From Kutzneria viridogrisea (lineage in GTDB: Bacteria > Actinomycetota > Actinomycetes > Mycobacteriales > Pseudonocardiaceae), in assembly GCA_014138725.1 (NCBI GenBank), contig JACJID010000009.1, positions 372,001 to 436,000 on the forward strand: a stretch of 64,000 bases of DNA, written 5' to 3'. The notes under the pieces were generated by a model. That model saw only the letters and a list, made by a program, of their open reading frames with translations, made no database searches and was not told the origin of the DNA. Each line of letters starts with the position of its first letter. Position 1 is the stretch's first letter. Positions 32,070 to 46,514 of the stretch are shown one piece after another. A program made the position numbers and the translations under genes.

Positions 32070-34328
32070 GTGACGACCACGGAGTCACCGGCCGGGCACG
32101 GACGAGTTGAACTGGCTATCGGTGGCATGACTTGTGCCTCCTGCGCTGCGCGCATCGAGCGCAAGCTCAACAAGCGGGATGGCGTGTCGGCGACGGTGAA
32201 CTTCGCGACTGAGCGAGCGACCGTCACACACCGCTCAGACGTCACCGTGGACGAGTTGGTCTCCATCGTCGAGGCCGCAGGGTATGAGGCGACACCGCCA
32301 CGGTCACACGACGAGCCCGAAGACCAGCCAGAGTCCGCCGAGGACGAGCACACCACTGATCTTCGACTGCGCTTTGTCATCGCAGCATTCCTGGGAGCGC
32401 CGGTGCTGGCGATCTCGATGGTGCCGGTCCTGCAGTTCCCAGTGTGGCAGTGGGTCGTCCTCGCGCTGTCGACCACGGTGGTCTGGGTCTGCGGTTGGCC
32501 GTTTCACCGAGCTGCAGCCGTGAACCTCCGCCACGGCGCAACCACCATGGACACCCTGGTGTCGATGGGTGTGACGGTCGCATACCTGTGGTCCGTCTAC
32601 GCGCTCGTCTTCGGCGGCGCTGGTGTGGTCGGCATGCGCCACGAGTTCAGCATCGCGCCGTCCGCGCGAGCCGGAGCTGACGTCTATCTCGAAGTAGCCG
32701 TCGGCGTGACCATCTTCCTGTTGCTCGGTCGATGGCTGGAGGCACGTTCCAAGCGGAAGGCTGGCGCGGCCCTGCGGGCACTGCTCGCACTCGGCGCGAA
32801 GGACGTCGTGGTCCTGCGCGGAGACAGGGAACTGCGCATCCCGGTGGCTGAATTGGTGGTCGGCGATCTCTTCGTAGTGCGCCCCGGCGAGAAGATCGCC
32901 ACTGACGGTGCTGTCGAGATCGGCAGCTCAGCAATCGACCGTTCCATGGTCACCGGCGAGTCAGTTCCGGAGGAGGTCGGCGTCGGCGACGGGGTGGTCG
33001 GCGGCACCGTCAATGTCGGTGGGCGGCTCGTCGTTCGCGCAACCAGGGTTGGTACCGACACACAGCTCGCGCAGATGGCCAAGCTGGTCGAGCAGGCACA
33101 AACCGGCAAGGCCGAGGTCCAGCGCCTGGCAGACCGCATCTCGGCGGTGTTCGTCCCGATCGTCCTGGCGCTCGCATTGATCACCCTGGCCGGCTGGCTG
33201 GTCGCGGGCAAGCCAGTGGCGTTCGCTGTCACGACAGCGGTCGCCGTACTGGTGATCGCCTGCCCCTGCGCGCTCGGGCTCGCGACACCGACAGCCCTGC
33301 TGGTGGGTACCGGCCGTGGTGCACAGCTGGGCATTCTCGTGAAGGGCCCCGAGGTGCTGGAGTCCACTCGCAAGATCGACACCGTGGTGCTCGACAAAAC
33401 CGGCACCGTGACGACAGGTCAGATGGCCCTGGTCGAGGTCCGACCGGTTGCGGGTGTGGACCGACAGGACCTGCTGAGCTTCGCCGGCGCGGTCGAGCAG
33501 GCATCGGAGCACCCCATCGCGCGAGCCATCACCACAGGTGCGCAGTCCGAGCTTGGGTCCCTGCCTGCTGTGGAGGACTTCCGCAACACCGAGGGACTCG
33601 GCGTCGTGGGTGTGGTGGGCAGCACCGCGGTGCTGGTTGGTCGCCCACGGCTGCTCGCGGACTGGTCGATCGAGATCCCGGCCGAGTTGGCGGCGGTCCA
33701 ACGAGAGGCAGAGGCGAGCGGACGCACAGTGGTGGCGGTTGCCTGGGACGGCGCGGCCAAGGGCCTGATTGCCGTCTCGGACACCGTGAAGCAGGGCAGC
33801 GGCGAGGCGATCCGACTGCTGCGCGGGCTTGGTCTGCGCCCCGTGCTGCTCACCGGCGACAACTCCACGGTGGCCAACGCGGTCGCCGCCGAGGTGGGCA
33901 TCAGCCCAGCAGATGTGATTGCCGAGGTGCTGCCAGCCGACAAGGTCGCAGCGGTACGCAAGTTGCAGTCCGAGGGCCACACGGTGGCGATGGTCGGCGA
34001 TGGGGTCAACGACGCGCCCGCGCTGGCCGCCGCTGACCTCGGGCTGGCGATGGGGACCGGCACTGACGTCGCGATCGAGGCTGGCGATCTCACGCTGGTC
34101 CGCGGTGACCTGCGAGCTACCGCGGACGCGATCAGGCTGTCGCGCAGGACGCTGGCGACGATCAAGGGAAACCTGTTCTGGGCGTTCGCCTACAACGTCG
34201 CGGGGCTGCCGCTGGCTGCGCTCGGCCTGTTGAATCCGATGCTCGCCGGCGCGGCGATGGCGTTCTCCAGTGTGTTCGTCGTGACGAACAGCCTTCGGTT
34301 GCGCGGGTTCCAATCAAGCACTCGGTGA
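32070..34328 (+). CDS. copA: Copper-exporting P1B-type ATPase CopA
   Basis: 752 residues. One N-terminal HMA domain carries Cys22 and Cys25 in [13 protein letters not shown]. About eight membrane helices follow, with the CPC metal site at Cys398-Cys400 ([13 protein letters not shown]). The phosphorylation site is Asp442 in [10 protein letters not shown], with EHPIARA (nucleotide domain) and [18 protein letters not shown] (hinge). The SxxP-like [10 protein letters not shown] lies in the actuator domain. This is the Cu(I) subgroup, which exports copper from the cytoplasm. GTG at 32070 has AGGAGG 6-8 nt upstream. Confidence 0.93.
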
Positions 34329-34821
34329 GGCCGAAAACAGGACCAGCATTCGCGAAACCGTGAGCGTTTGCCCACTTCTGGCAGTTGTTGGCAACAAGCT
34401 CGCGACTATCAGACTTGGGCGGTGGTCGCTGCCGAACACGGAGTGTGCGCAGGTGACGGTCACGCTCGGTGCAGACGAACCTGGCAGACCAAAAGGGCAG
34501 CACTAGCCACAGAGTCCACTCCGACACAACCCCTGTCCGGAGCATCCGCACTCAGCCAGGCTCCGCAACGATCTTGATTCCAGGGACCGGCTACCTGGTT
34601 TTCAAGCGGTGAATCCTGCGAGGTTTTTCCGCCCAAAACCCTCCCGCGCAGGTGCGGCCCATGTCACAATTGGCTGGCTGACACACCCCCGGTCAGCGCC
34701 TGTGGAGATCCCCTCCGGCCCCCGCGTTCCTCCCCCTGGCGCGGGGGCCTCTCCACGACTGGGGCATGTGTCGCCGGACACACCCGACACCTCGTCGCAA
34801 CCGAACCGTTATCGTATCCGG
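34329..34821. other. Noncoding stretch after copA with a large hairpin
   Basis: No supported gene; open frames here have no start signals. It holds a two-part hairpin at 34702-34756: outer GTGGAGA/TCTCCAC (34702-34708, 34750-34756) and inner GGCCCCCGCG/CGCGGGGGCC (34717-34726, 34740-34749). At the right end TATCGT (34810-34815) ends 6 nt before the GTG at 34822, a likely -10 box for a leaderless mRNA. Confidence 0.45.
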
Positions 34822-35142
34822 GTGCCTCTTCCCTCCCTTGGACGTGCCAAGAACGGCAAACACCGCGAACCTGCGCGCGAGCAGCAGGTCGAGGCGGCCC
34901 CGGACCACGACCTGGAGAACTACCTGGCCGCGCTGGCGCCGGAAGGCGACGTCGAGACCACGGGCTCGGGCCGACGATTCGGCAACGCGCAGGTCTACCA
35001 GCTGCGGCTCTCGTTGGTCGCGAACGAGCAGCTGCGCGAGTTGGCAGCCCGGCACCAGACCTCCCCACTGGCGTTGGCGCAGGAGTGGATCACCCAGCGG
35101 CTGGCTTGGGAGACCCAGGGCCAGCAGTCCTCCCAGTACTGA
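34822..35142 (+). CDS. Small protein with a ribbon-helix-helix-like C-terminus
   Basis: 106 residues. The first 55 are basic then acidic and look disordered (AKNGKHREPAREQQ, DHDLENYLAALAPEGD). The C-terminus, VYQLRLSLVANEQLRELAARHQTSPLALAQEWI in outline, has the beta-strand/two-helix spacing of CopG/Arc-type DNA-binding domains. That suggests a DNA-binding dimer. GTG at 34822 is chosen because a TATCGT -10 box ends 6 nt earlier and the upstream in-frame codons cross the hairpin region. No toxin partner is adjacent. Confidence 0.6.
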   Translation: MPLPSLGRAKNGKHREPAREQQVEAAPDHDLENYLAALAPEGDVETTGSGRRFGNAQVYQLRLSLVANEQLRELAARHQTSPLALAQEWITQRLAWETQGQQSSQY

Positions 35143-35252
35143 TCTGCTTGCCTTTACGGGCAGGCCGCTGCCATAGCGGCGCTCCGAGGGCAGACGCGAG
35201 AAGTTCGTCCTGATATCGAGTTCAACCGGACTCGGCGAGCGAGACGGTCACT

Positions 35253-35264
35253 TACGATCAACTC
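35253..35264 (+). promoter_or_regulatory. -10 element of a probable leaderless promoter
   Basis: TACGAT at 35253-35258 ends 6 nt before the GTG at 35265, and no Shine-Dalgarno sequence intervenes. Confidence 0.45.
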
Positions 35265-36947
35265 GTGCCAACGCTTCAACTGCGCAGGGGCGAACGGCGT
35301 CGGCATCTCGTGGTGTGCGGCGACAGTCCGTTGGCCTACCGGCTGATCGACGAACTGGTCACGCGCTACGACGAGGACGTCACGGTCATCCTCCGGTCCA
35401 AGCAGCGCAACCACGGACCGCGCATAGCTCAACTGGGCAAAGTAAAGATCATCGAAGCACCGGAACTCGATGCCGGGGCCTTCACGCAAGCCAAGCTGAT
35501 CAATGCCCGCGCGATCGCCCTGCTCGACTCGGATGACGTCAGCAACATCCACGCCGCACTGCGGGCCCAGGACATGAATCCGGATCTGCGCCTGGTGCTG
35601 CGCGTGTTCAACATGAGCCTGGGCCACCGGATCCGCACGCTGTTCACCGATTGCGCCGTGCTCTCCGACGCCGCGATGGCCGCGCCGTCTTTCGTCGCCG
35701 CAGTGCTCGGACGAGAGGGCCCCACGCACATCAGGGTCCCCGGCAGGACTCTCTACGTCGTGCGCCGAGAGGACGTACCTGCCGACCGAGTGGTCTGCAC
35801 CCTCGCGGACACCACCGATCCGGTCGGCCCGAAGTTGCTGCCACACGAGCGGCACTCCGATGACCTGGTGCTCGCCTTCGCGAGCGGGGCCAATCGGATC
35901 GAGCGGGAACCCAGGCGGCGGTCGTGGGGCGCCTCAGTTCGCCGCAACCTCAGCACAGTGTTCAACCGCAAGGTCGGCATCGCGGCGCTGGCGCTGTTCT
36001 CGCTGCTCACGCTCGGCACGATCGCCTTCGCGACGCTCGGCGGCTACTCCTGGTGGGACGCGATCTACGAGACCGCTCTCGACGCGGCGGGCGCAGCCCA
36101 GCCCCAGCCGGATATGCCCGCCATCAACAAGATCACCCAGGTCATGGTGACCATAGTCGGGATCTCCATCATCCCGATCATCACCGCGGTCGCGGTGGAC
36201 GCCGTGGTGAGCGCACGGTTGGCGGCGGCGGGAGACCCGACAGGCCCGTTCCACGACCACGTGGTGGTGGTCGGCCTTGGCCAGGTGGGCACCAGGGTGG
36301 TCGCACAGCTGCACGACCTCGGGGTCCCTCTTGTGTGCGTTGACAAGGACGAGAATGCACGTGGCGTGCCGTTGGCCCGCAGGCTCGGCTTGCCGGTGGT
36401 GTTCGGAGACGCCAGCCGCGAGGACACGCTGCGGTCCGCTTACATCGGTACCTGCCGGGCGCTGGTCACTCTGAGCTCGCACGACATCGTGAACCTGGAA
36501 GCAGCTCTGACGGCACGAGCGATCCGCGAGGAGTTGCTCGTGGTGCTGCGCCTGTTCGACAACGACTTCGCCAAGCTCGTGGAACGGCGCTTCGACATCG
36601 ACGTCTCGCGCAGCGTGTCCTTCCTCGCCGCCCCTGCCTTCGCGGCCGCCATGGTGGAGCACCAGGTGATCGGCACGATCCCGGTGGGACGCCGCGTGCT
36701 GCTGATCGCGGAGGTTCCGATCAAGGCAGGCACCGTGCTGCACAGCAGCACCGTCCGCGCGGCGGAGGAGCAGGGCGAGGTGCGGGTCATCGGGCTGCTA
36801 CGACGCAACACCGACACGGTCGACTGGCAGCCGCCGCCCTCGCACGTGTTGGAGCCCAAGGACCGGCTGATGGTGGTCGCGACCAGGACAGGGCTGAGCC
36901 ACGTGCTGTTCAAGAGCACCAACGCGGGCCAGGAGTCCGGCTCCTGA
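35265..36947 (+). CDS. RCK-pore-RCK channel-like NAD-binding protein
   Basis: 560 residues. An N-terminal TrkA-N/RCK-like domain (about 12-195) has HLVVCGDSPLAYRLIDEL. Two membrane helices follow at about 228-250 (VGIAALALFSLLTLGTIAFA) and 283-308 (VMVTIVGISIIPIITAVAVD), then a second RCK domain (about 322-555) with HVVVVGLGQVGTRVVAQLHD. The loop between the helices, YSWWDAIYETALDAAGAAQ, sits where a pore helix would be but has no TVGYG filter. Ion selectivity, if it is a channel, is unclear. The order resembles actinobacterial relatives of CASTOR/POLLUX-type proteins. Confidence 0.75.
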   Translation: MPTLQLRRGERRRHLVVCGDSPLAYRLIDELVTRYDEDVTVILRSKQRNHGPRIAQLGKVKIIEAPELDAGAFTQAKLINARAIALLDSDDVSNIHAALRAQDMNPDLRLVLRVFNMSLGHRIRTLFTDCAVLSDAAMAAPSFVAAVLGREGPTHIRVPGRTLYVVRREDVPADRVVCTLADTTDPVGPKLLPHERHSDDLVLAFASGANRIEREPRRRSWGASVRRNLSTVFNRKVGIAALALFSLLTLGTIAFATLGGYSWWDAIYETALDAAGAAQPQPDMPAINKITQVMVTIVGISIIPIITAVAVDAVVSARLAAAGDPTGPFHDHVVVVGLGQVGTRVVAQLHDLGVPLVCVDKDENARGVPLARRLGLPVVFGDASREDTLRSAYIGTCRALVTLSSHDIVNLEAALTARAIREELLVVLRLFDNDFAKLVERRFDIDVSRSVSFLAAPAFAAAMVEHQVIGTIPVGRRVLLIAEVPIKAGTVLHSSTVRAAEEQGEVRVIGLLRRNTDTVDWQPPPSHVLEPKDRLMVVATRTGLSHVLFKSTNAGQESGS

Positions 36948-37021
36948 TCTTGATCTAATCGAGAGCACCGGTGTCGGACGATGGAGGTACGGTGCTGCGC
37001 AGAGGGACCACTCGCCGGTAC

Positions 37022-37037
37022 TGTGACGCAAGTCACG
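37022..37037. promoter_or_regulatory. CRP/GlxR-like palindrome upstream of an L,D-transpeptidase gene
   Basis: TGTGACGCAAGTCACG fits TGTGA-N6-TCAC(A/G), the CRP-family consensus, about 78 nt before the gene start. Confidence 0.45.
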
Positions 37038-37114
37038 TTTGAGGTAGTCAACGTGGCAGTTGCCCGCCGCGTCGATTGAGTGGAGAAGCACCAGGTCGGG
37101 GGGAAGGGGTGACC

Positions 37115-38311
37115 GTGAGGCGGACCGGGAGAGTCCAGCGCTGGCTGGTGGTGTTGGGGGCACTGGTCACAACGGTCGGGCTGGCCTCGTGCAGTTCGAG
37201 CACCTCGCCGAGCACCACGCCGCCCAAGTCGACCGAGCAGAAGGTGTCACCCGCCGCGGTGTCCCAGCCCGCGAAGGTGACCCAGGTCCCCGGCGACGGG
37301 GCGCAGAACGTCTCGCCCGCCGACGCCGTGCAGGTGACGGTCAAGGACGGGGCGATCTCCGAGGTCCACCTCACCAACCAGCAGGGCAAGGACGTCGCCG
37401 GCACGCTCGCGGCCGACAAGCACACCTGGACCGCGTCCGAGCCGCTCGGCTACGGCAGGAGCTACACCTGGGCGGGTAGTGCTGTCGGCTCGGACGGCAA
37501 GCAGGTCTCGCTGGGGGGCACGTTCAGCACGGTGCAACCCGCATACCAGATCAGCGGCCAGCTCAACATCGCCGACGGGGACACCGTGGGCGTGGCTATG
37601 CCCATCGTGCTCACCTTCAGCTCACCGGTGCGGGACAAGGCCGCGGTCGAGAAGGCACTCGTCGTGAAGACCTCGGTCCCGACCAGTGGGTCCTGGGCTT
37701 GGATGGACGACAAGACCGTTCACTACCGGCCGACGAACTACTGGGTCCCCGGTACGAAGGTGACCGTGACCGCCAAGCTGCACGGCACGCCGTTCGGCAG
37801 CGGCGCCTACGGCATGGACGATGTCAGCACCTCGTTCACCATCGGCCGCATGCTCATCCTGCGTGGGAACACGCAGACGCACCGGCTCCAGGTGATCACC
37901 AACAACCAGGTGACGGCGGACTACCCGGCCAGTTTCGGGCTCGACAGCGACCCGGGTCGCGTCACGAACAGCGGCATCCATGTCGTGATGTCCAAGAGCA
38001 CCACGTTCTCGATGACCAACCCCAAGTACCACTACCAGGACGTGGTCGTGCCCTGGGCTGTGCGCATCTCGAACAACGGTGAATTCGTGCACGGTTACGC
38101 ACCGAGCATCTGGGCGCAGGGCAACACCAACGTCTCGCACGGTTGTGTGAACCTGGCGCCCGACAACGCCAAGACGGTGTTCGACGAGGTCATCCCGGGC
38201 GACCCGGTGGAGATCAGCGGTTCCACGGAGCAGTTGGGTCCTGAGGACGGCGACTTCTACGACTGGGCAGTGCCGTGGGACCAGTGGCAGGCCAAGTCGG
38301 CGCTGCACTGA
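37115..38311 (+). CDS. L,D-transpeptidase lipoprotein
   Basis: About 398 residues. The lipoprotein signal has VQRWLVVLGALVTTVGL and lipobox ASC followed by a Ser/Thr-rich spacer. Two Ig-like domains (about 55-250) lead to a C-terminal YkuD domain with the catalytic motif NVSHGCVNLAP (Cys344, counted from GTG 37115) and an earlier conserved His in EFVHGYAPSIW. The enzyme makes 3-3 cross-links in peptidoglycan or attaches proteins. Starts at TTG 37076 and GTG 37109 are also open; 37115 has GGAAG 8 nt upstream. A paralogue lies at 44101. Confidence 0.88.
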   Translation: MRRTGRVQRWLVVLGALVTTVGLASCSSSTSPSTTPPKSTEQKVSPAAVSQPAKVTQVPGDGAQNVSPADAVQVTVKDGAISEVHLTNQQGKDVAGTLAADKHTWTASEPLGYGRSYTWAGSAVGSDGKQVSLGGTFSTVQPAYQISGQLNIADGDTVGVAMPIVLTFSSPVRDKAAVEKALVVKTSVPTSGSWAWMDDKTVHYRPTNYWVPGTKVTVTAKLHGTPFGSGAYGMDDVSTSFTIGRMLILRGNTQTHRLQVITNNQVTADYPASFGLDSDPGRVTNSGIHVVMSKSTTFSMTNPKYHYQDVVVPWAVRISNNGEFVHGYAPSIWAQGNTNVSHGCVNLAPDNAKTVFDEVIPGDPVEISGSTEQLGPEDGDFYDWAVPWDQWQAKSALH

Positions 38312-38329
38312 ACCAAGACCCGTTTTCCC

Positions 38330-38364
38330 CTCGTGGGGTGGTCGCGATGCGACCACCCCACGAG
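38330..38364. terminator. Perfect 16-bp hairpin after the L,D-transpeptidase gene
   Basis: Arms 38330-38345 (CTCGTGGGGTGGTCGC) and 38349-38364 enclose a 3-nt loop, 18 nt after the stop. No clear T-run follows, but the stem is strong. Confidence 0.65.
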
Positions 38365-38515
38365 TGCGTTCAAGCCAGAGATCCACCAGGTGTCAGACGT
38401 CACGTCCCCGTGTTCGGGCAGCTCGACAGCCGCGCCGCGGGGAACTTGGGACAAGATTCCCACGATGGTGGATTTGGCTGGGTAGCGTCACCCTGCCGGA
38501 TGAGAAAGGCAGAGG

Positions 38516-39475
38516 ATGACCGACCCCGAACAGGTGGCCGCGCTCTTGGCCGCCAACGCGGCGACGCTGGAGTCGATGCGAGTGCTGCTGGCCAACTCGC
38601 AGCAGCAGTTGGCCGAGGTCACGCGTCTGACGCAGGAGCTGGGCGAGCGCACCGCTCATGCGCAGTCGCCGGACCGGATGGTCACGGTGACCGTCGACGG
38701 GACCGGGGCGTTGAGGCAGGTCTCCTTCGACCGGGACACCTTCGAACACCACACGCCGATGAGCTTGGCCAGCGCGGTCACCAAGGCTGCGCGTGACGCA
38801 GTGCGTCAGCTCACCAGCAATGACGACGCGGAGCTCGAACGCGTGAGCGTTGCAGCAACGCACGAGCCGTCGTCGACGGCGACCGCGCAGCAGATCGTCG
38901 CGCCCGCACCACAACCGCCGACGCCGACCTCGTCGACCGCGGTCGATCTCGACCAGCCCGTGGCGGTGTCGGCTCAAGCTGACGAGCAACGCACGGTCGT
39001 CACTGCTCCGCCACCCGCGCTGTCGGACGACCCCGTACCGGTGCCCGCCCCGGTGGCGATCCAGGACCCGCCGCCACGCCCGGTCGACGTAGTACCGGAC
39101 AGCGGCAACAGCCAGATCGACCACGTCGTGTCCGCACTGAGCCGCCTGCCCTCCTACACCGGCATCGTGACCAGGGTGCTCGGCGTCCGCGATCCGGAGC
39201 GCGCGGCGGCTATCGCCAGTCAGTACGTACCCGGGGAAACGATCATCGAGCGCACCTTCCTGAGCACCTCGGCCAACCCGGCCTACACCGGGGACGGCCT
39301 GGTCAGGTACACGATCGAGGCCAAGCACAACGGCAAGCTGATCGGTGGCATCTCGCAGGACGGCGAGGCCTTCGGCGAGGTCGTCTTCGGACCGGGGTGC
39401 CGGTTCCGGATCACCGGCAAGCGGTACTACCCGAGCATGCGCGGCTGGGACATCGCACTGGAGGAGCTGGGCTGA
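38516..39475 (+). CDS. YbaB/EbfC-like domain joined to an ADP-ribosyltransferase-like domain
   Basis: 319 residues in three parts. Residues 1-105 resemble YbaB/EbfC nucleoid proteins (helix LLANSQQQLAEVTRLTQEL, then VTVTVDGTGALRQVSFD). Residues 110-195 are a Pro/Ala/Val-rich linker. Residues 200-319 look like an R-S-E ADP-ribosyltransferase: Arg220 in YTGIVTRVLGV, Ser250-Thr-Ser252 in RTFLSTSANPAY, and Glu288 in GEAFGEVVFGPGCRFRI, which mimics the ExE turn and the PGxxF strand. The residue two before Glu288 is Phe, not Glu/Gln, so activity is uncertain. The next gene, an ADP-ribosylglycohydrolase, overlaps it by 1 nt. The ART call is my motif inference. Confidence 0.65.
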   Translation: MTDPEQVAALLAANAATLESMRVLLANSQQQLAEVTRLTQELGERTAHAQSPDRMVTVTVDGTGALRQVSFDRDTFEHHTPMSLASAVTKAARDAVRQLTSNDDAELERVSVAATHEPSSTATAQQIVAPAPQPPTPTSSTAVDLDQPVAVSAQADEQRTVVTAPPPALSDDPVPVPAPVAIQDPPPRPVDVVPDSGNSQIDHVVSALSRLPSYTGIVTRVLGVRDPERAAAIASQYVPGETIIERTFLSTSANPAYTGDGLVRYTIEAKHNGKLIGGISQDGEAFGEVVFGPGCRFRITGKRYYPSMRGWDIALEELG

Positions 39476-40740
39476 TGGCGGTCAGCGAGTGGGAGTGGGC
39501 GCCGGGCACCCCGGTGGACCACACGGTGAAGATCATCAAGTTCCACAGGGACAGCCTCGCCGTGCCCCAGGAGCAGCGCGTGCGACTGGCCGATCCGAGC
39601 CGTCACGACTTCCCGATCGGTCTGGACGAGTCCGATCGGAAGTTCCCGGTGCCAAGCCAGGCCCCGTCCTGGTCGGAGCGGGTGATGGGCAGCCTGCTGG
39701 CCGGTGCGGTGGGCGACGCGCTGGGAGCGCCGATCGAGTTCCTCTCGATCGAGTCGATCCGCGGGCAGCACGGCCCGGAGGGGGTCACCGGACCTGGCGC
39801 GAGCGGCCTGATCACCGACGACACGCAGATGACCTTGTTCACGCTGGAGGGACTGATCCGGGCACACGTGCGCGACCGCGTGTCCGGACCAGGAGATCCG
39901 CTGCCGATCGTGCAGCACGCCTACCAGCGCTGGCTGCACACGCAGGGCGTCGAGTGGCCGCAGGCGGGCGGGCCGTTCGCTGAGCGAGTGCCGCATCCGG
40001 ACGGCTGGCTGATCACCGAACGGGGCCTGTTCGAGGTCGCCGCGCCCGGCAATACCTGCCTGTCCGCGCTGCGCAAGTTCGCCGCGGGCAGTCCACCAGG
40101 CACGTTCACCAACCGGATCAACGACTCCAAGGGCTGCGGTGGCGTCATGCGGGCGGCACCCGCGGCGCTGTGGTCCGCCGACCCGGTCGAGGTGTTCTCG
40201 CTCGGTGCGGCGACAGCGGCGCTGACGCACAGCCACCCCACCGGCTATATCTCGGCGGGGGCGCTGGCCTTCCTGGTGCACGGTCTGCTCACCTCGTCCT
40301 CGCTGCCTGCGGCGATCGCGGCACTGACGAGGGTGTTGCAGCGCTGGGCAGGCCACGAGGAGCAGCTCGCAGCCCTGGAGCGGGCGGTTCGGCTGGCCGA
40401 CGAGGGAAGGGTCAGCCCCGAGCGCATCGCGGAGGAGCTGGGCGGCGGCTGGATCGGTGAGGAGGCGCTGGCGATCGCTGTCTACGCGATGCTGGTGACC
40501 GACACCCTGGCCGACGCACTGCTGGTGTCGGTGAACCACTCGGGGGACAGCGACTCGACGGGGGCGATCTGCGGCAACCTGGCGGGCGCGCTCTACGGGG
40601 TGCGATCGATCCCGGCCGACTGGCTCGACCGGCTCGAACTGCGGCAGGTAATCACCACTCTGGGGGAGGACGCACTGACGGAGTTCAGTGCCCACCCACC
40701 CACCGAGGACCGCTGGGTGCAGCGCTACCCGAGCTGGTGA
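39475..40740 (+). CDS. ADP-ribosylglycohydrolase (DraG/ARH family) with N-terminal extension
   Basis: 421 residues. After a 65-residue extension of unknown role comes the DraG-like fold, with its magnesium-site motifs: GSLLAGAVGDALGAPIEF, ITDDTQMTLFTLEGL (Asp115, Asp116), CGGVMRAAPAAL, and NHSGDSDSTGAICGNLAG (Asp358, Asp360). The family cuts ADP-ribose from modified proteins or nucleic acid. ATG at 39475 overlaps the upstream stop (TGATG), so translation is coupled to the ART-like protein. This strongly suggests that it reverses that protein's modification. Confidence 0.88.
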   Translation: MAVSEWEWAPGTPVDHTVKIIKFHRDSLAVPQEQRVRLADPSRHDFPIGLDESDRKFPVPSQAPSWSERVMGSLLAGAVGDALGAPIEFLSIESIRGQHGPEGVTGPGASGLITDDTQMTLFTLEGLIRAHVRDRVSGPGDPLPIVQHAYQRWLHTQGVEWPQAGGPFAERVPHPDGWLITERGLFEVAAPGNTCLSALRKFAAGSPPGTFTNRINDSKGCGGVMRAAPAALWSADPVEVFSLGAATAALTHSHPTGYISAGALAFLVHGLLTSSSLPAAIAALTRVLQRWAGHEEQLAALERAVRLADEGRVSPERIAEELGGGWIGEEALAIAVYAMLVTDTLADALLVSVNHSGDSDSTGAICGNLAGALYGVRSIPADWLDRLELRQVITTLGEDALTEFSAHPPTEDRWVQRYPSW

Positions 40741-40751
40741 GAACGGCAATT

Positions 40752-40789
40752 CTCCGGTCCGGTGACGTACTTGCGCCACCGGACCGGAG
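40752..40789. terminator. 13-bp hairpin between convergent genes
   Basis: CTCCGGTCCGGTG (40752-40764) pairs perfectly with 40777-40789 around a 12-nt loop, 12 nt after the glycohydrolase stop and facing the convergent mihF gene. Confidence 0.6.
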
Positions 40790-40843
40790 TGACTCGATAT
40801 CGGCCTACCGGACCTTTATCGGTCATCGAGCACATGACCGTGC

Positions 40844-41161
40844 TCAGCCGATCGCGTCGAGGAGGGCCTGGCGCTGACGGTCACCGAGCCCGGCGGCCCT
40901 GCGGTCCACGTCGATGCCGGTCTCCTCGAGGAGCTTGGCCACCTTCACGGCGCCCAGGCCGGGAACGGCCTTGAGCAGCTGGGCGACCTTGGTCTTTCCG
41001 ACGGTCTTGTCCTCCTTGGCGCGCTTGAGCACCTCGGCGAAGGTCGTCTCGCCGGACTTGATCGATGCGAGCAGGGCCGTGCGGGCCTTGCGGGCCTCAG
41101 CGGCCTTCGCCAGCGCTTCCGCGCGCTGCTCGGGGGTCAGTGTGGGCAGAGCCAACTTCAT
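40844..41161 (-). CDS. mihF: Integration host factor, actinobacterial type (mIHF)
   Basis: 105 residues. The N-terminal helix is LPTLTPEQRAEALAKAAEAR. The S13-like helix-two-turn-helix is KTKVAQLLKAVPGLGAVKVAKLLEE in outline, ending in LGDRQRQALLDAI. It matches the mycobacterial mIHF/streptomycete sIHF nucleoid proteins, which bind DNA without sequence specificity and affect topology. ATG at 41161 has AAAGGA upstream; an in-frame ATG at 41179 adds MSQERT. In most actinobacteria this gene lies by gmk, which is not the case here. Confidence 0.88.
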   Translation of the reverse strand: MKLALPTLTPEQRAEALAKAAEARKARTALLASIKSGETTFAEVLKRAKEDKTVGKTKVAQLLKAVPGLGAVKVAKLLEETGIDVDRRAAGLGDRQRQALLDAIG

Positions 41162-41448
41162 GGTCCTTTCTTGCGACAAGGAGCTGCTCGACGGCCATCA
41201 TGCACGCTGACCACGTCTTTCGTCAGCGTTCACGTCTCCTGGCGCGTCGGGGCAACCCCGTGGGTGACGCTACGCCAGCCGACGGGGTGACGTGGCGGGA
41301 CACTGGGAAGTTCATCCAGGTGAAGGGCTCTTTACGCCCAGCTCACAGCTGGTGGATCGGTGACGCCCCGCAGTCGACGGCGTCCAGCCCGTGGGAGCGA
41401 CCCCGACCGGGGTTGACGGTCCGCTCGGGGCGTCCGCACGATGGCCAC

Positions 41449-41532
41449 ATGCTGCCTGTGCTGCCGAAACTCGTTCGGCGGCTGCACGTGGACCTGTTCC
41501 GGGCGACCACCTGTGGCTGTCGTGGCCACTGA
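41449..41532 (+). CDS. Putative Cys-containing leader peptide upstream of the sulfur operon
   Basis: 27 residues: LVRRLHVDLFRATTCGC in the core, ending RGH. It matches the pattern of the short actinobacterial leader peptides that I know of ahead of sulfur-assimilation genes (RRxHVDLxR then Ser/Thr/Ala and late Cys codons). In mycobacteria such peptides stall ribosomes at Cys codons to couple cysteine supply to expression. It ends 46 nt before the OsmC-family start. The frame is distinct from the longer open frames around it. Confidence 0.65.
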   Translation: MLPVLPKLVRRLHVDLFRATTCGCRGH

Positions 41533-41578
41533 TCGCCCCGTCAGCACACCCGACCACAGCCCCGCACAGGAGAACAAA

Positions 41579-42079
41579 ATGTCACTGTCCGCAGTCATCG
41601 AGGGCACGCATCAGGCCGTGACCGCAGACCGGTCGAAGGCCTCCGTGTCGTTCACCACGGTCAACTCGCTCGTGCCAGGGAGCAGGACCGAAGTCGCGGT
41701 CACCGCCCGTGACCACAAGTTCACCGTGGACGAGCCGGCCGCTCTCGGCGGCGAGGACCTGGCGGCGAACCCGGTCGAGTACGCGCTCGCCGCGCTCGGC
41801 TCCTGCCAGGTGATCACCTACCAGTTCTGGGCCGCCAAGCTCGGCATCCGGCTCGACTCGGTGTCCGTGCGGGTGGACGGCGACCTCGACCTGCACGGCT
41901 TCTTCGGCTTCGACGAGCAGACCCGAGCCGGGTTCACCGAGGTCCGCGTGCACGTGGACCTCGGCGGCCCGGAGGAGCCCGCCCGCTACCAGGAGCTCAG
42001 GGAGGCCGTGGACCGGCACTGCCCGGTGCTCGACCTGTTCCGCAACCCGACTCCGTTGCAGACGACACTGTCCTCATGA
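41579..42079 (+). CDS. OsmC-family protein
   Basis: 166 residues with the OsmC fold and its two reactive cysteines, Cys76 (LAALGSCQVITYQ) and Cys148 (DRHCPVLDLF). The family reduces organic hydroperoxides or handles reactive sulfur species. DEPAALGGEDLAANPVEYAL is the typical pre-Cys segment. ATG at 41579 has AGGAGA 5 nt upstream. It overlaps metY by 4 nt, so a role in sulfur chemistry (persulfide or sulfide stress) is more likely than general peroxide defence here. Confidence 0.88.
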   Translation: MSLSAVIEGTHQAVTADRSKASVSFTTVNSLVPGSRTEVAVTARDHKFTVDEPAALGGEDLAANPVEYALAALGSCQVITYQFWAAKLGIRLDSVSVRVDGDLDLHGFFGFDEQTRAGFTEVRVHVDLGGPEEPARYQELREAVDRHCPVLDLFRNPTPLQTTLSS

Positions 42080-43368
42080 GTGATCGGAACTGGGGCTTCC
42101 GCACGCGGGCGCTGCACGCGGGCGGGAGCCCCGACCCCACCACGGGTGCCCGGGCCGTACCGATCTACCAGACGAGCAGCTTCGTGTTCGCCGACAGCGC
42201 CGACGCGGCCAACCTGTTCGCGCTGCAGAAGTACGGCAACGTCTACAGCCGGATCGGCAACCCGACCGTCGCGGCGTTCGAGGAGCGCATCGCCAGCCTC
42301 GAGGACGGCATCGGCGCGGTGGCCACGGCCAGCGGTCAGGCAGCCGAGTTCCTGACCTTCGCGGCGCTGACCGAGGCAGGCGACCACATCGTGTCCGCCG
42401 CGAACCTCTACGGCGGCACGATCACACAACTCGACGGCACGCTGCGGCGCTTCGGCGTTGACACGACCTTCGTGGCCGAAGACAGCATCGACGCCTACGC
42501 GGCAGCGCTCACACCCAACACCCGGCTCATCTACACAGAGGTGGTTGGCAACCCGTCCGGGGACATAGCCGATCTGGCCGCGCTGGCCGACCTCGCGCGT
42601 TCGGCCGACATCCCGCTCGTCGTGGACTCGACCATCGCGACGCCCTACCTGTGCCGTCCGCTGGAGCACGGGGCGGACATCGTGCTGCACTCGGCGACCA
42701 AGTTCCTCGGCGGGCACGGCACGACGCTGGGCGGCGTGGTGGTCGACTCGGGCCGCTTCGACTGGGGCAACGGCAAGTTCCCACGCATGACCGAGACCGT
42801 GCCGAGCTACGGCGGGCTCCGGTACTGGGAGAACTTCGGCGAGTACGCGTTCTGCACGAGGCTGCGCGCCGAGCAGTTGCGCGACATCGGAGCGGTGCTG
42901 TCGCCGCACTCGGCGTTCCTGCTGTTGCAGGGGGTCGAGACGCTGCCGCAGCGGATGGACGCGCACCTGCGCAACACCGTGGAGATCGCCCGGTGGTTGG
43001 CGGCGGACCCGCGCGTGTCCTGGGTGAACTACGCCGGTCTAGAGTCGCACCGCCACCACGACCGGGCTGCCCGGTACCTGCCCAACGGTCCTGGTGCGGT
43101 GTTCTCCTTCGGCGTGCGCGGTGGTCGTGCGGCGGGGCAGCGGTTCGTCGAGTCGGTGGAGCTGTGCAGTCACCTCGCGAACATCGGCGACGTGCGAACG
43201 CTGGTGATCCACCCGGCGTCGACCACGCACCAGCAGTTGTCCGACGAGCAACTCACAGCCGCTGGCGTCACCCCGGACCTGGTTCGGCTGTCGGTCGGGC
43301 TGGAGGACGTCGAGGACCTGATCTGGGACCTCGACCAGGCACTCGCCGAGGCGGTGAAGGCGGAATGA
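42076..43368 (+). CDS. metY: O-acetylhomoserine sulfhydrylase (MetY-like)
   Basis: 430 residues, Cys/Met-metabolism PLP family. Typical motifs are [19 protein letters not shown] at the start, [30 protein letters not shown], and Lys209 in [17 protein letters not shown] as PLP lysine. The C-terminus has [20 protein letters not shown] and [13 protein letters not shown]. Length (about 430 rather than 390) favours MetY over cystathionine gamma-synthase. It makes homocysteine from O-acetylhomoserine and sulfide. ATG at 42076 overlaps the OsmC stop (ATGA). Confidence 0.92.
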
Positions 43369-43844
43369 GCTGGATTGGCCCTTCGGCACGGGACCGGATG
43401 CGGATCCTGCGCGGCACGAAGTCGGTCGCGCTGATCGGTGCCTCCGACAACCCCGCGCGACCCAGCTACTTCGTGGCGACATACCTGTTGTCCTCCACGC
43501 GGTACCAGGTGCACTTCGTGAACCCGCGGCTCAAGCACCTGCTCGGTCAGCCGGTGCACCCTTCACTGGACGCCCTGCCGGACAAGCCCGACCTGATCTC
43601 GGTGTTCCGCAAGCACGATGACCTGCCCGCCGTGGCCGAGGAGGTCATCGCTGCTGGTGCGCGCACCCTGTGGCTCCAACTCGGCCTGTGGCACGAGCCC
43701 GTGGCGGCCGCCGCGGAGCAGGCGGGTTTGACCGTGGTGATGAACCGCTGCGTGAAGATCGAGCATGCACGGTTCGCGGGCGGGCTGCACCTGGCCGGGT
43801 TCAACACCGGTGTGATCACCTCGCGGCGCAACGGGAACCTCTGA
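43365..43844 (+). CDS. CoA-binding (YccU-like) protein
   Basis: 159 residues forming one Rossmann CoA-binding domain: SVALIGASDNPARPSYFVATYLL at the N-terminus in outline, VHFVNPRLKHLLGQPVHPSL, PDLISVFRKHDDLPAVAEEV, and LWLQLGLWHEPVAAAAEQAGL followed by VMNRCVKIEHARF. This matches the YccU group. Its biochemical role is not established. ATG at 43365 overlaps the metY stop, completing a three-gene overlapping operon. Confidence 0.85.
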   Translation: MSWIGPSARDRMRILRGTKSVALIGASDNPARPSYFVATYLLSSTRYQVHFVNPRLKHLLGQPVHPSLDALPDKPDLISVFRKHDDLPAVAEEVIAAGARTLWLQLGLWHEPVAAAAEQAGLTVVMNRCVKIEHARFAGGLHLAGFNTGVITSRRNGNL

Positions 43845-44100
43845 GCGAACTCCCAGCGATCACCCGATTGGCAGGCTCCTACCCGTTCGGTGCAGGAATG
43901 CGGCGCCGGAACGCCCGCTATGCGTGATACGGGCGGTTAGGAATTCCCCACATCGCATGTATCCGGCTCGGTAGAGCAACGCCAGAGGGCGCACCACGTC
44001 CTCTGAGCAGTGCGGCCGCCGCCTAGTGTGAACAGGGCGAGGTCGGCCACCAACGGGTCTGAGGCTGATCCGGGTCACGGCCGGGAACGAAGAGGATTTC

Positions 44101-45315
44101 ATGCAGTTCCGAGCAAGCGATCGGCGCCGTCGGCGCTGGAGGTCCGTCAGTGCCGCCGGGCTGGCCGTCGCCGCCCTTACCCTGAGCGCCTGCTCGTCCG
44201 GCGAGGGCGGCACCGCCTCCAACGGTGCGACCGCGCCGGCGCCCAGTGCGCCGGACGCCAAGGTGACCGTCACCCCGAACGAGTCCGGTGAGGTCAACCC
44301 GGCCACTCCGGTCGTCGTGAAGGTCGCGGGCGGGAAGCTGACCGGGGTCACGCTGACGAACACCGCCAAGGGCAACACGGTCAAGGGCGAGATCGCCGCC
44401 GACGGTCTGAGCTGGACCTCCACCGAGCCGCTCGGCTACGGCGCCGTCTACGACCTGGACGCGCAGGCGGTGAACCCGAGCGACAAACAGACCGAGCAGA
44501 AGGCCACCATCAAGACGGTGACGCCCGCCGCGCAGGCGTACCCGGCGATGATCCCCGCGCCGAACCCGAGCGCGACCTTCGGCGTCGGTCAGATCATCGG
44601 GGTGTCCTTCGACCAGCCGGTCGCCGACAAGGCCGCAGCGGAGAAGGCGCTCAAGGTCACCACGACCCCGCCGCAGCAGGGCAGCTGGTTCTGGATCGAC
44701 AAGCAGACCGCCCACTACCGCGCGCAGACCTACTGGAAGGCCGGCACCACGATCAAGCTGGACGCCAACCTGTACGGGGTGAACCTCGGCGGCGGGGTGT
44801 ACGGCAAGACCGACCGCTCGGCCACGTACAAGATCCACGACTCCTGGGTGGCCAAGGCGGACGGCAACTCCAAGCAGATGCAGATCCTGCACGACGGGGC
44901 CGTGGTGAACACGATGCCGATCAGCCTCGGCAAGGACAGCACCCCGACCCACGTCGGCCCGCACGTGATCTCCGACAAGGCGAAGGAGGTGCTGATGGAC
45001 TCCTGCACCTACGGCCTGTGCCCGCCCGCCGCCGGTGCCTACAAGGCCACCGAGTACTTCGCGGAGCGGATCTCCAACGACGGCGAGTTCGTGCACGAGA
45101 ACCCGGGCACCGTCGGCCAGCAGGGCAACTCGAACGTGTCGCACGGCTGCATCAACCTGAGCCCGGAGAACGCCGAGTGGTTCTTCAACAACTTCAACCT
45201 CGGTGACGTGGTCGAGGTGACCAACTCGGGCGGTCCCAAGCTGCCGATCTACGACACCTACGGCGACTGGGAACTGAGCTGGGCGGACTGGCAAGCAGGT
45301 AGTGCACTGCGTTGA
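44101..45315 (+). CDS. L,D-transpeptidase lipoprotein (second copy)
   Basis: 404 residues. A basic start (RASDRRRRRWRSV), a hydrophobic core and the lipobox LSAC predict a lipoprotein. Ig-like domains fill about 55-250. The YkuD domain has NVSHGCINLSPENAEW with catalytic Cys350 and a conserved His in EFVHENPGTVGQQ. It forms 3-3 peptidoglycan cross-links in the periplasm-like wall zone. ATG at 44101 has AGAGGA 5 nt upstream, and TAGTGT (44024-44029) is a possible -10. It resembles the gene at 37115 throughout, including the final WADWQAGSALR/WDQWQAKSALH. Confidence 0.9.
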   Translation: MQFRASDRRRRRWRSVSAAGLAVAALTLSACSSGEGGTASNGATAPAPSAPDAKVTVTPNESGEVNPATPVVVKVAGGKLTGVTLTNTAKGNTVKGEIAADGLSWTSTEPLGYGAVYDLDAQAVNPSDKQTEQKATIKTVTPAAQAYPAMIPAPNPSATFGVGQIIGVSFDQPVADKAAAEKALKVTTTPPQQGSWFWIDKQTAHYRAQTYWKAGTTIKLDANLYGVNLGGGVYGKTDRSATYKIHDSWVAKADGNSKQMQILHDGAVVNTMPISLGKDSTPTHVGPHVISDKAKEVLMDSCTYGLCPPAAGAYKATEYFAERISNDGEFVHENPGTVGQQGNSNVSHGCINLSPENAEWFFNNFNLGDVVEVTNSGGPKLPIYDTYGDWELSWADWQAGSALR

Positions 45316-46514
45316 CCGCTGACTCAGAGGCTCTGACCAGGCTGATCTGGACGGCGGTCGACAGGCAGTCCAGGGGCATAAAGCGAGCAGGGCCCGCAGC
45401 CGCCCGGGAGCTGGCCCAAGAACCGGAGCGCGCGGTCGACGTCGCGGTGGACCAAGCGTTGCACCGCTTCGTCGACCTGCTCTGGGACGGCGGCTGGCTG
45501 CCGTACGACCTGGTACGCGCGGTCGGGCGGGATGGCGATGAGTTCGCGAGCGCGCTGGTGGTCGACGCCATCGCCGCTGATGTGGCGCGCCATCCGACTG
45601 CGTCACTGCACGAACGTTGGCGTGAGCAGTTGAGCACTGTCGGGGCAGTGGTCTGGTGGCGCAGTGATGCTCCGCTGTTCGGTCAGTGGGCGGAACGCCA
45701 CATCCTGACCAGGGTCGAAGCGCTCACCACGGCAATTGGACTGCTGGCGGCCCTGATGCGCCTGCCTCGGCTGCCCCAGATCGTGCCGCCGCCCGGCACG
45801 GCGGCCCAGAAGGTCGATCACGCGCGTCCCGCCGTGGACCAGAAGGTGCTGGCCCGCGTGCGTGGCCTGCTCGCCAAGGCCGAGTCGACGCAGTTCCCCG
45901 ACGAGGCAGAGGCGCTGTCGGCCAAGGCCCAGGAACTGATGAACCGCTACGCCCTGGAACGGGCGATGCTCGACGCCACCGAGCACGTGCCGCAGACCGC
46001 AACGGCCAGTCGGCTCTGGCTCGACACTCCTTATATAGGGGCCAAGGCGAACCTGGTGTGCGTCGTGGCCGATGCCAACAGGTGCCGGGGCGTGATCTAC
46101 GAGAAGCTCGGGTTCGTGGCCCTGATCGGTGACGAGTTGGACCTGGAGATCACCGAACTGCTCGCGACCTCGCTGTTGCTGCAGGCCACCAGGGCGATGG
46201 TGCACGCCGGTAGCCGTGCGACGCGGGATGACGAGTCGCGCAGCCGTGCGTACCGGCAGGCGTTCCTGCTCTCCTACGCCAGTCGGATCGGTGAGCGGTT
46301 GAGCTCGGTCACGGCGGATCTCGTCGACGACAACCTGCTTCCTGTGCTCGCCGACCGCACCCAGGTCGTCGACCAGCTGTTCGACTCGATGTACCCGCAG
46401 GCGCGGCCCAAGTCGTTCACGGTGCGCAGCGCCGCCGGGTGGGGCGCGGGCCGGGCCGCCGCCGACCAGGCCGACCTCGGCGTAACACGACCACCGCTCG
46501 GCCGAAACTCCTAA
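45312..46514 (+). CDS. DUF2786-domain protein
   Basis: 400 residues. The DUF2786 segment near 175-215 is RVRGLLAKAESTQFPDEAE in outline, continuing ALSAKAQELMNRYAL. A longer conserved region follows (ADANRCRGVIYEKLGFVALIG, SRAYRQAFLLSYASRIGERL), seen in actinobacterial members. The N-terminal 170 residues are helical and unassigned. Function unknown. The start is a TTG at 45312 overlapping the transpeptidase stop (TTGA). Confidence 0.75.
   Translation: MTADSEALTRLIWTAVDRQSRGIKRAGPAAARELAQEPERAVDVAVDQALHRFVDLLWDGGWLPYDLVRAVGRDGDEFASALVVDAIAADVARHPTASLHERWREQLSTVGAVVWWRSDAPLFGQWAERHILTRVEALTTAIGLLAALMRLPRLPQIVPPPGTAAQKVDHARPAVDQKVLARVRGLLAKAESTQFPDEAEALSAKAQELMNRYALERAMLDATEHVPQTATASRLWLDTPYIGAKANLVCVVADANRCRGVIYEKLGFVALIGDELDLEITELLATSLLLQATRAMVHAGSRATRDDESRSRAYRQAFLLSYASRIGERLSSVTADLVDDNLLPVLADRTQVVDQLFDSMYPQARPKSFTVRSAAGWGAGRAAADQADLGVTRPPLGRNS

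What the first reader, a model, noticed from the sequence alone, without database searches (positions are those of the whole stretch)
38516..40740. Coupled ADP-ribosyltransferase-like / ADP-ribosylglycohydrolase pair with a YbaB-type front end
The upstream protein joins a YbaB/EbfC-like DNA-binding domain through a Pro-rich linker to a domain with the R (220), STS (250-252) and terminal E (288) of R-S-E ADP-ribosyltransferases. The next gene, sharing one base (TGATG), is a DraG-type ADP-ribosylglycohydrolase with intact metal motifs. Writer and eraser in one coupled unit resemble DraT-DraG or DarT-DarG logic. But YbaB fusion plus DraG-type eraser is a combination I do not know as described. 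It could reversibly modify a DNA-bound or nucleoid target, or be a toxin-immunity pair. Phe at the -2 position of the ExE turn leaves open a pseudo-enzyme that binds NAD or ADP-ribose.
Basis: partly seen in the sequence, partly recalled or inferred. Interest (0 to 1): 0.8.

Follow-up and report, generated by a model that had tools for sequence, protein, structure and literature searches.

The report
Recycled secreted-toxin cassette kept by Kutzneria
A soil actinobacterium and its sister species keep a two-gene unit that looks like a trimmed-down, domesticated version of a secreted ADP-ribosylating toxin and its antidote enzyme, joined to a helper domain that normally sits next to such toxins.

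Summary
P0001 (38516-39475) joins a YbaB domain through a Pro-rich linker to an R-S-E ADP-ribosyltransferase (ART) core; P0002 (39475-40740) is a DraG-type ADP-ribosylhydrolase (ARH). Fused gene plus ARH sit at one syntenic place in 7 of 7 Kutzneria genomes seen, under purifying selection. Relatives in the family point to the origin: the ART core is a tip or internal domain of long T7SS-type proteins, with a separate YbaB gene upstream in 35 of 62 matches and ARH downstream in 14 of 62 (5 of the 5 best-scoring). The fused YbaB resembles those operon YbaBs, not the RecR-linked nucleoid YbaB, so the DNA reading is not supported. The Kutzneria ART lacks the N-terminal helical lobe (helix motif in 50 of 62 relatives, 0 of 7 here) and has Phe before the catalytic Glu where relatives have Glu/Gln (7 of 7 against 48 of 53). 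Best reading: a collapsed, domesticated T7SS toxin-immunity cassette, probably cytosolic, whose ART is probably no longer a canonical arginine ART; inactive or retargeted is open. ART/ARH pairing is known; the YbaB fusion with a trimmed ART was not found in the papers searched.

The parts
38330..38364 (+). Strong hairpin between the upstream L,D-transpeptidase gene and the pair; terminator-like, suggests the pair is its own transcription unit
   Evidence: z-score -6.1, 0 of 200 shuffles as stable; best upstream hairpin in the six sister loci -25.0 to -41.1 kcal/mol; function inferred
38516..39475 (+). P0001, 319 aa: YbaB domain - Pro-rich linker - ART core
   Evidence: ORF and translation; orthologues in 7 of 7 genus genomes seen
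38594..38845 (+). YbaB domain (residues 27-110), T7SS-operon class
   Evidence: PF02575 E 1.3e-12; class by two profiles
38846..39106 (+). Pro-rich linker (residues 111-197), hypervariable; stands where relatives have the ART N-terminal helical lobe
   Evidence: residues 106-197: mean identity 0.35, dN/dS 0.75; helix motif absent 7 of 7
39107..39472 (+). ART core (residues 198-319)
   Evidence: PDB matches to ART chains; mean identity 0.87, dN/dS 0.20
39173..39175 (+). R220 of the R-S-E signature
   Evidence: R in 7 of 7; R in 54 of 62 relatives
39263..39271 (+). S250-T251-S252
   Evidence: STS in 7 of 7
39365..39379 (+). ARTT loop end E284-A-F286-G-E288; the catalytic-type Glu is E288
   Evidence: F at -2 in 7 of 7; Glu/Gln at -2 in 48 of 53 relatives that keep R and E
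39475..40740 (+). P0002, 421 aa: DraG/ARH-type ADP-ribosylhydrolase with an N-terminal extension of about 65 residues
   Evidence: PF03747 residues 72-381, E 4.4e-76; DraG alignment; ARH part dN/dS 0.22
40752..40789 (+). Strong hairpin after the ARH gene, before the convergent IHF-like gene
   Evidence: z-score -5.2, 0 of 200 shuffles as stable; hairpins of -32.7 to -37.2 kcal/mol in the other 6 of 6 loci

Best explanation
The pair is a collapsed and domesticated T7SS polymorphic-toxin cassette. In the relatives that match best, the order is YbaB gene (probable substrate chaperone), a long protein with an N-terminal WXG100-type export domain and an ART, then ARH gene(s). In the Kutzneria ancestor the export domain, the body and the front of the ART were lost: the chaperone-type YbaB was fused directly to the ART core, and the ARH was kept. 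The product has no export domain that Pfam recognises, and no T7SS gene was found among the nine neighbours tested, so it most likely stays in the cytosol. The YbaB part (a dimer in known members; recalled) would present two ART cores. Because the N-terminal helical lobe is gone and the specificity position of the ARTT loop is Phe, the core most likely no longer does canonical arginine ADP-ribosylation; it would serve as a binding module (for NAD, an ADP-ribosylated target, or the ARH), with the intact ARH as the active enzyme that strips ADP-ribose. Shown: homologies, fusion, pairing, shared gene order with relatives, lobe loss by sequence, loop change, purifying selection. Inferred: descent from such a cassette, no export, loss of canonical activity, binding role.
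For: Fused gene and ARH between the same neighbours (TrkA-type, L,D-transpeptidase, IHF-like) in 7 of 7 genus genomes seen. 62 ART matches outside Kutzneria (61 places in all 55 matching genomes, plus one): same-strand YbaB upstream within 9 kb in 35 of 62, always a separate gene (fused 0 of 62); ARH downstream in 14 of 62. The five best-scoring matches (G030, G259, G263, G378, G262) have ARH downstream in 5 of 5 and YbaB upstream in 4 of 5, the fifth lying at a contig end. All 5 C-terminal ART tips with YbaB upstream also have ARH downstream. Ten of these long proteins tested: T7SS-type N-terminal domain in 10 of 10 at E < 0.01, over Pfam's cut-off in 8. Around 20 further places with high-scoring ARHs, ART is found in 11 and YbaB in 13. 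YbaB class by profile. In the own genome 8 of 8 other YbaB loci without RecR have a WXG100- or EspC-type gene within two genes, 5 of 8 over the cut-off, one a TNT toxin. N-lobe motif and loop residue. dN/dS ART 0.20, ARH 0.22.
Against: YbaB linkage is mostly to proteins with an internal ART (30 of 37) and rare for C-terminal tips (5 of 25); ARH follows 7 of 25 tips and 7 of 37 internal ones. So the four-part layout is one of several; in 11 of 62 places less than 1 kb was fetched beyond the frame, and the counts come from related genomes, not independent events. R, STS, E and most conserved columns are kept, as expected of an enzyme; but 86 of 122 columns are invariant anyway, so this is weak either way. 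Two of the eight other own YbaBs (L004, L012) fit the RecR-linked profile better though they sit beside T7SS-type genes, so the profiles do not separate the classes perfectly. The N-lobe helix pattern was written after looking at the sequences. No structure model could be made. Non-export is argued from absence.
Confidence: 0.45

Rival explanations
1. Active cytosolic writer/eraser: the trimmed ART still transfers ADP-ribose, but to a residue other than arginine because of the E-x-F-x-E loop, and the ARH removes it. The pair would be a reversible regulatory switch or a toxin-antitoxin unit.
For: R220, STS, E284 and E288 invariant in 7 of 7; strong purifying selection on both proteins; ARH intact; coupled genes between two hairpins.
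Against: N-terminal helical lobe absent 7 of 7; the sixth ARTT residue, described as Glu/Gln in R-S-E ARTs (PMC7827354, passages), is Phe.
Confidence: 0.3
2. Minimal T7SS effector with its immunity protein: the YbaB domain acts in cis as the export chaperone and carries the ART out.
For: YbaB is of the T7SS-operon class; the genome has EccB, EccD and an FtsK-type ATPase gene near a YbaB paralogue.
Against: No WXG100, EspC or similar domain in P0001, whereas 10 of 10 long relatives tested have one; no T7SS gene among nine neighbours tested in the window; fixed synteny and slow evolution are unlike swapped toxin tips.
Confidence: 0.12
3. Nucleoid-associated reversible ADP-ribosylation, with YbaB as a DNA-binding targeting domain.
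For: PF02575 match; an IHF-like gene (S13-like H2TH domain) lies convergent next door.
Against: The fused YbaB fits the T7SS-operon profile better than the RecR-linked one in 7 of 7 and is under the TIGR00103 cut-off.
Confidence: 0.07

Closest known systems
Tox-ART-RSE with Imm-ADP-RGHD (polymorphic toxin systems, PMC3482391; passages seen)
   Same: R-S-E ART toxin domain beside an ADP-ribosyl glycohydrolase as enzymatic immunity protein; T7SS listed among trafficking modes
   Different: no trafficking domain, no long toxin body; YbaB fused directly; ART N-lobe missing and loop altered; fixed in one place across the genus genomes seen
Tre1-Tri1 of Serratia proteamaculans (T6SS; PMC7827354, passages seen)
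   Same: ART related in sequence to 6dre_B (E 7.5e-4) and ARH to 6dre_A (E 7.1e-19); that 6dre is Tre1/Tri1 is recalled
   Different: Tre1 modifies an arginine of FtsZ and is delivered by T6SS; here no delivery domain and Phe at the specificity position
EspL / EspH / EspD, YbaB-like ESX-1 proteins (PMC6107294, PMC6319747; passages seen)
   Same: YbaB-type domain tied to T7SS substrates, proposed chaperones
   Different: separate proteins; here the YbaB is fused to an enzyme-type domain and not near a T7SS
DraT-DraG and DarT-DarG (recalled; DarT seen only in listings)
   Same: writer and eraser encoded side by side
   Different: P0001 hits no DraT or DarT family in Pfam; the eraser is an ARH, not a macrodomain; P0002 is below the DraG equivalog cut-off

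Membership tests
R-S-E class ADP-ribosyltransferase | significant sequence relation to known R-S-E ARTs | tested here: met
   2gwm E 9.6e-7, VsdC 1.6e-6; profile 3e-6
R-S-E class ADP-ribosyltransferase | R, S-T-S and catalytic Glu | tested here: met
   R220, S250-T251-S252, E288 in 7 of 7
R-S-E class ADP-ribosyltransferase | ARTT loop with Glu/Gln two residues before the catalytic Glu (definition from PMC7827354) | tested here: not met
   Phe in 7 of 7
R-S-E class ADP-ribosyltransferase | N-terminal helical lobe; Pfam ART families PF03496, PF01129 | tested here: not met
   no Pfam ART hit in the window protein or L037 orthologue; helix motif absent 7 of 7
R-S-E class ADP-ribosyltransferase | NAD-dependent transfer | not testable with these tools
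   needs an assay
ADP-ribosylglycohydrolase (PF03747) | family profile and metal-binding motifs | tested here: met
   E 4.4e-76, 256.7 bits against 26.2; ITDDTQM and GDSDSTGA align with DraG; that these bind the metals is recalled
DraG or Tri1 equivalogs | NCBIfam equivalog cut-offs | tested here: not met
   TIGR02662 107.8 against 337.05; NF041672 78.2 against 490
YbaB/EbfC nucleoid-associated protein | PF02575 domain | tested here: met
   48.1 bits against 25.5
YbaB/EbfC nucleoid-associated protein | TIGR00103 equivalog cut-off and RecR linkage | tested here: not met
   32.5 bits against 49.45; RecR motif beside 21 of 21 top-scoring copies, none in window 33001-46000
T7SS polymorphic toxin-immunity system | immunity gene directly downstream | tested here: met
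   ARH in 7 of 7
T7SS polymorphic toxin-immunity system | WXG/LXG-type trafficking domain or adjacent T7SS genes | tested here: not met
   none in P0001 or in nine neighbouring proteins
DarTG | DarT domain plus macrodomain antitoxin | tested here: not met
   no such Pfam hit in either protein

The most novel reading that the evidence does not exclude
YbaB-family proteins are a widespread class of dedicated adaptors for T7SS polymorphic toxins in Pseudonocardiaceae (ART and TNT toxins included), and the Kutzneria gene is a natural fusion that exposes this pairing: its toxin part has been domesticated into a cytosolic reversible ADP-ribosylation (or ADP-ribose-reading) module whose E-x-F-x-E loop and missing N-lobe give a target chemistry unlike any described R-S-E ART.
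Probability: 0.22. Interest if true: 0.75.

Novelty: new variant of a known kind. Interest (0 to 1): 0.52.

Why it matters
It turns an apparently odd fusion into a readable series, from secreted toxin cassette to resident module. It points to YbaB genes as markers and probable chaperones of T7SS substrates outside mycobacteria, which can be tested directly in non-pathogenic actinomycetes. It also offers a natural ART variant, conserved across the genus genomes seen, for asking what the N-lobe and the ARTT specificity position do.

Tried and rejected
Rejected: chance similarity (and conservation in 7 of 7); decaying pseudogene (mean dN/dS 0.20 and 0.22); plasmid-borne origin (13 of 72,556 records match, all Salmonella spvB, none covering 80% of the query); nucleoid role. 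Wider spread: at class level 13 of 394 genomes match the ART core, the own genome included; in the 13 loci outside it, about 3 kb each, no YbaB or ARH was found by profile, but the flanks are short. YbaB near an ART by chance: with a median of 7 YbaB matches per genome in 13 family genomes I estimate well under 1%, against 35 of 62. Rows dropped: L093 (same place as L043) before the counts; seven divergent rows left out of the wide ART profile. Papers: none held all of YbaB + type VII secretion + actinobacteria, YbaB + WXG100 + toxin, Kutzneria + ADP-ribos, YbaB + fusion + ADP-ribosyl; preprints and most subscription papers are not held. Of the papers cited I saw passages only; the review PMC11217815 does not mention YbaB.

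Full report
What is there. The window lies in a 10.2 Mb genome. P0001 (38516-39475, 319 aa) has a YbaB domain (residues 27-110), a Pro-rich linker and an ART core (198-319) related to SpvB, VsdC, Tre1 and Vis chains (SpvB and Tre1 names partly recalled). P0002 (39475-40740, 421 aa) is an ADP-ribosylglycohydrolase. Strong hairpins stand before and after the pair (z -6.1 and -5.2), so it is probably its own transcription unit. Nine neighbouring proteins tested are ordinary: metal ATPase, TrkA-type, two L,D-transpeptidases, IHF-like, OsmC, a PLP enzyme, a DUF2786 protein and a GlmS-type protein.

Conservation. All 7 same-genus genomes that the searches showed carry the fused gene followed by the ARH, between the same TrkA-type, transpeptidase and IHF-like genes. 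Mean pairwise identity and dN/dS over 21 pairs are: ART core 0.87 and 0.20; ARH part 0.82 and 0.22; YbaB (1-105) 0.70 and 0.32; ARH N-extension 0.74 and 0.45; linker 0.35 and 0.75. The enzyme-type parts are under the strongest constraint and the linker under little. This is not what a rapidly exchanged toxin tip looks like.

Where it comes from. A profile of the seven ART cores finds 62 of 390 genomes of the family, 55 outside Kutzneria. I fetched surroundings for all 55 and read 62 distinct ART matches (61, one; one duplicate row dropped). They lie in open frames of 686 to 6600 residues. Of ten such proteins tested, ten have a T7SS-type N-terminal domain, eight over Pfam's cut-off. A separate YbaB gene lies upstream on the same strand within 9 kb in 35 of 62 and is fused in none; ARH lies downstream in 14 of 62 (usually about 5 kb of downstream sequence was fetched). 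The split matters: YbaB is upstream of 30 of 37 internal ARTs but of 5 of 25 C-terminal tips; ARH follows 7 of 37 and 7 of 25. All five tips with YbaB also have ARH, and the five matches that score best with the Kutzneria profile have ARH in 5 of 5 and YbaB in 4 of 5. In L044 the order is YbaB, a WXG100-like protein (below Pfam's cut-off), a protein whose tip passes PF03496's cut-off, and ARH. From the other side, around 20 further places taken from the top of the ARH list, ART (wide profile) is found in 11 and YbaB in 13. Several of these ARHs come in tandem arrays.

Which YbaB. Two profiles were built: one from 21 RecR-linked copies (RecR motif beside 21 of 21) and one from YbaBs of the ART-protein loci. 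All 7 fused YbaBs score higher with the second (41-50 bits against 12-27). Of the eight other own-genome YbaBs, six do so and two (L004, L012) do not. All eight of those loci lack the RecR motif and have a gene with a WXG100- or EspC-type match (E < 0.01) within two genes, 5 of 8 over Pfam's cut-off, one of them a WXG100_2-TNT toxin. Papers on mycobacteria propose that YbaB-like EspH and EspL are chaperones for ESX-1 substrates (PMC6107294 and PMC6319747, passages). So the YbaB half is best read as a T7SS-substrate chaperone type, not a nucleoid protein.

What has changed. First, the eight relatives tested carry further ART sequence, about 40 residues, upstream of the core: PF03496 is over its cut-off in 7 of 8, mostly starting there, and nothing ART-like is hit in the window protein or one orthologue. 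A helix of the form N-x(1,2)-[ASG]-L-[RW], usually after Y-T, is in 50 of 62 relatives and 0 of 7 Kutzneria proteins, where the hypervariable linker takes its place (the pattern was written after looking). Second, the residue two before the catalytic Glu, which matters for target chemistry in R-S-E ARTs (PMC7827354, passages), is Phe in 7 of 7, against Glu or Gln in 48 of 53 relatives that keep R and E. Beside close relatives it reads as a two-residue insertion, E-x-F-x-E. Otherwise the core keeps most of the family's conserved columns.

How it most likely works. Gene order, fusion and domain loss together indicate a toxin-immunity cassette that lost its delivery parts and was taken over by the cell. 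I think the ART core is more likely a binding module than a canonical arginine transferase, with P0002 the working enzyme, at about 0.45 for the whole reading; an active writer of altered specificity is the main rival at 0.3. Descent from a T7SS cassette is firmer (about 0.8) than any statement on present activity. No structure could be predicted.

Novelty. ART toxin plus ADP-ribosylhydrolase immunity is known (PMC3482391; Tre1-Tri1, PMC7827354), and so is the proposal that YbaB-like proteins serve T7SS substrates in mycobacteria. The YbaB fusion, the trimmed ART and its fixation in a genus were not found in the searches. I rate it a new variant of a known kind.

Noticed in passing
L207 4033-7053 (G000:C2, about 1940000-1943100): YbaB gene followed by a 734-aa protein with WXG100_2 and a C-terminal TNT domain: another YbaB-linked T7SS toxin type in the same genome.
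   Followed up: partly
L051, L052, L053, L054, L205, L206, L207, L208: All 8 other YbaB loci of the own genome without RecR have a WXG100- or EspC-type match within two genes; 5 of 8 over Pfam's cut-off.
   Followed up: yes
L041, L087, L108, L156, L161, L164, L165: Tandem arrays of ADP-ribosylhydrolases, some with two or more ARH matches in one open frame, downstream of T7SS-type ART proteins.
   Followed up: partly
L091, L092, L096, L116-L121: Very long proteins with an internal ART-like domain more than 1000 residues from the C-terminus, YbaB upstream, no ARH found in the little sequence fetched downstream.
   Followed up: no
L123, L126, L133, L135, L137-L139: A divergent group of ART-like tips whose R and STS columns read differently; possibly inactive, or misaligned.
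   Followed up: no
window 40847-41161, L203, L204: The IHF-like gene next to the pair has two more homologues in the genome at 48-50% identity.
   Followed up: no
window 37112-38311 and 44101-45315: Two L,D-transpeptidase paralogues with Big_10 and YkuD domains flank the locus.
   Followed up: no
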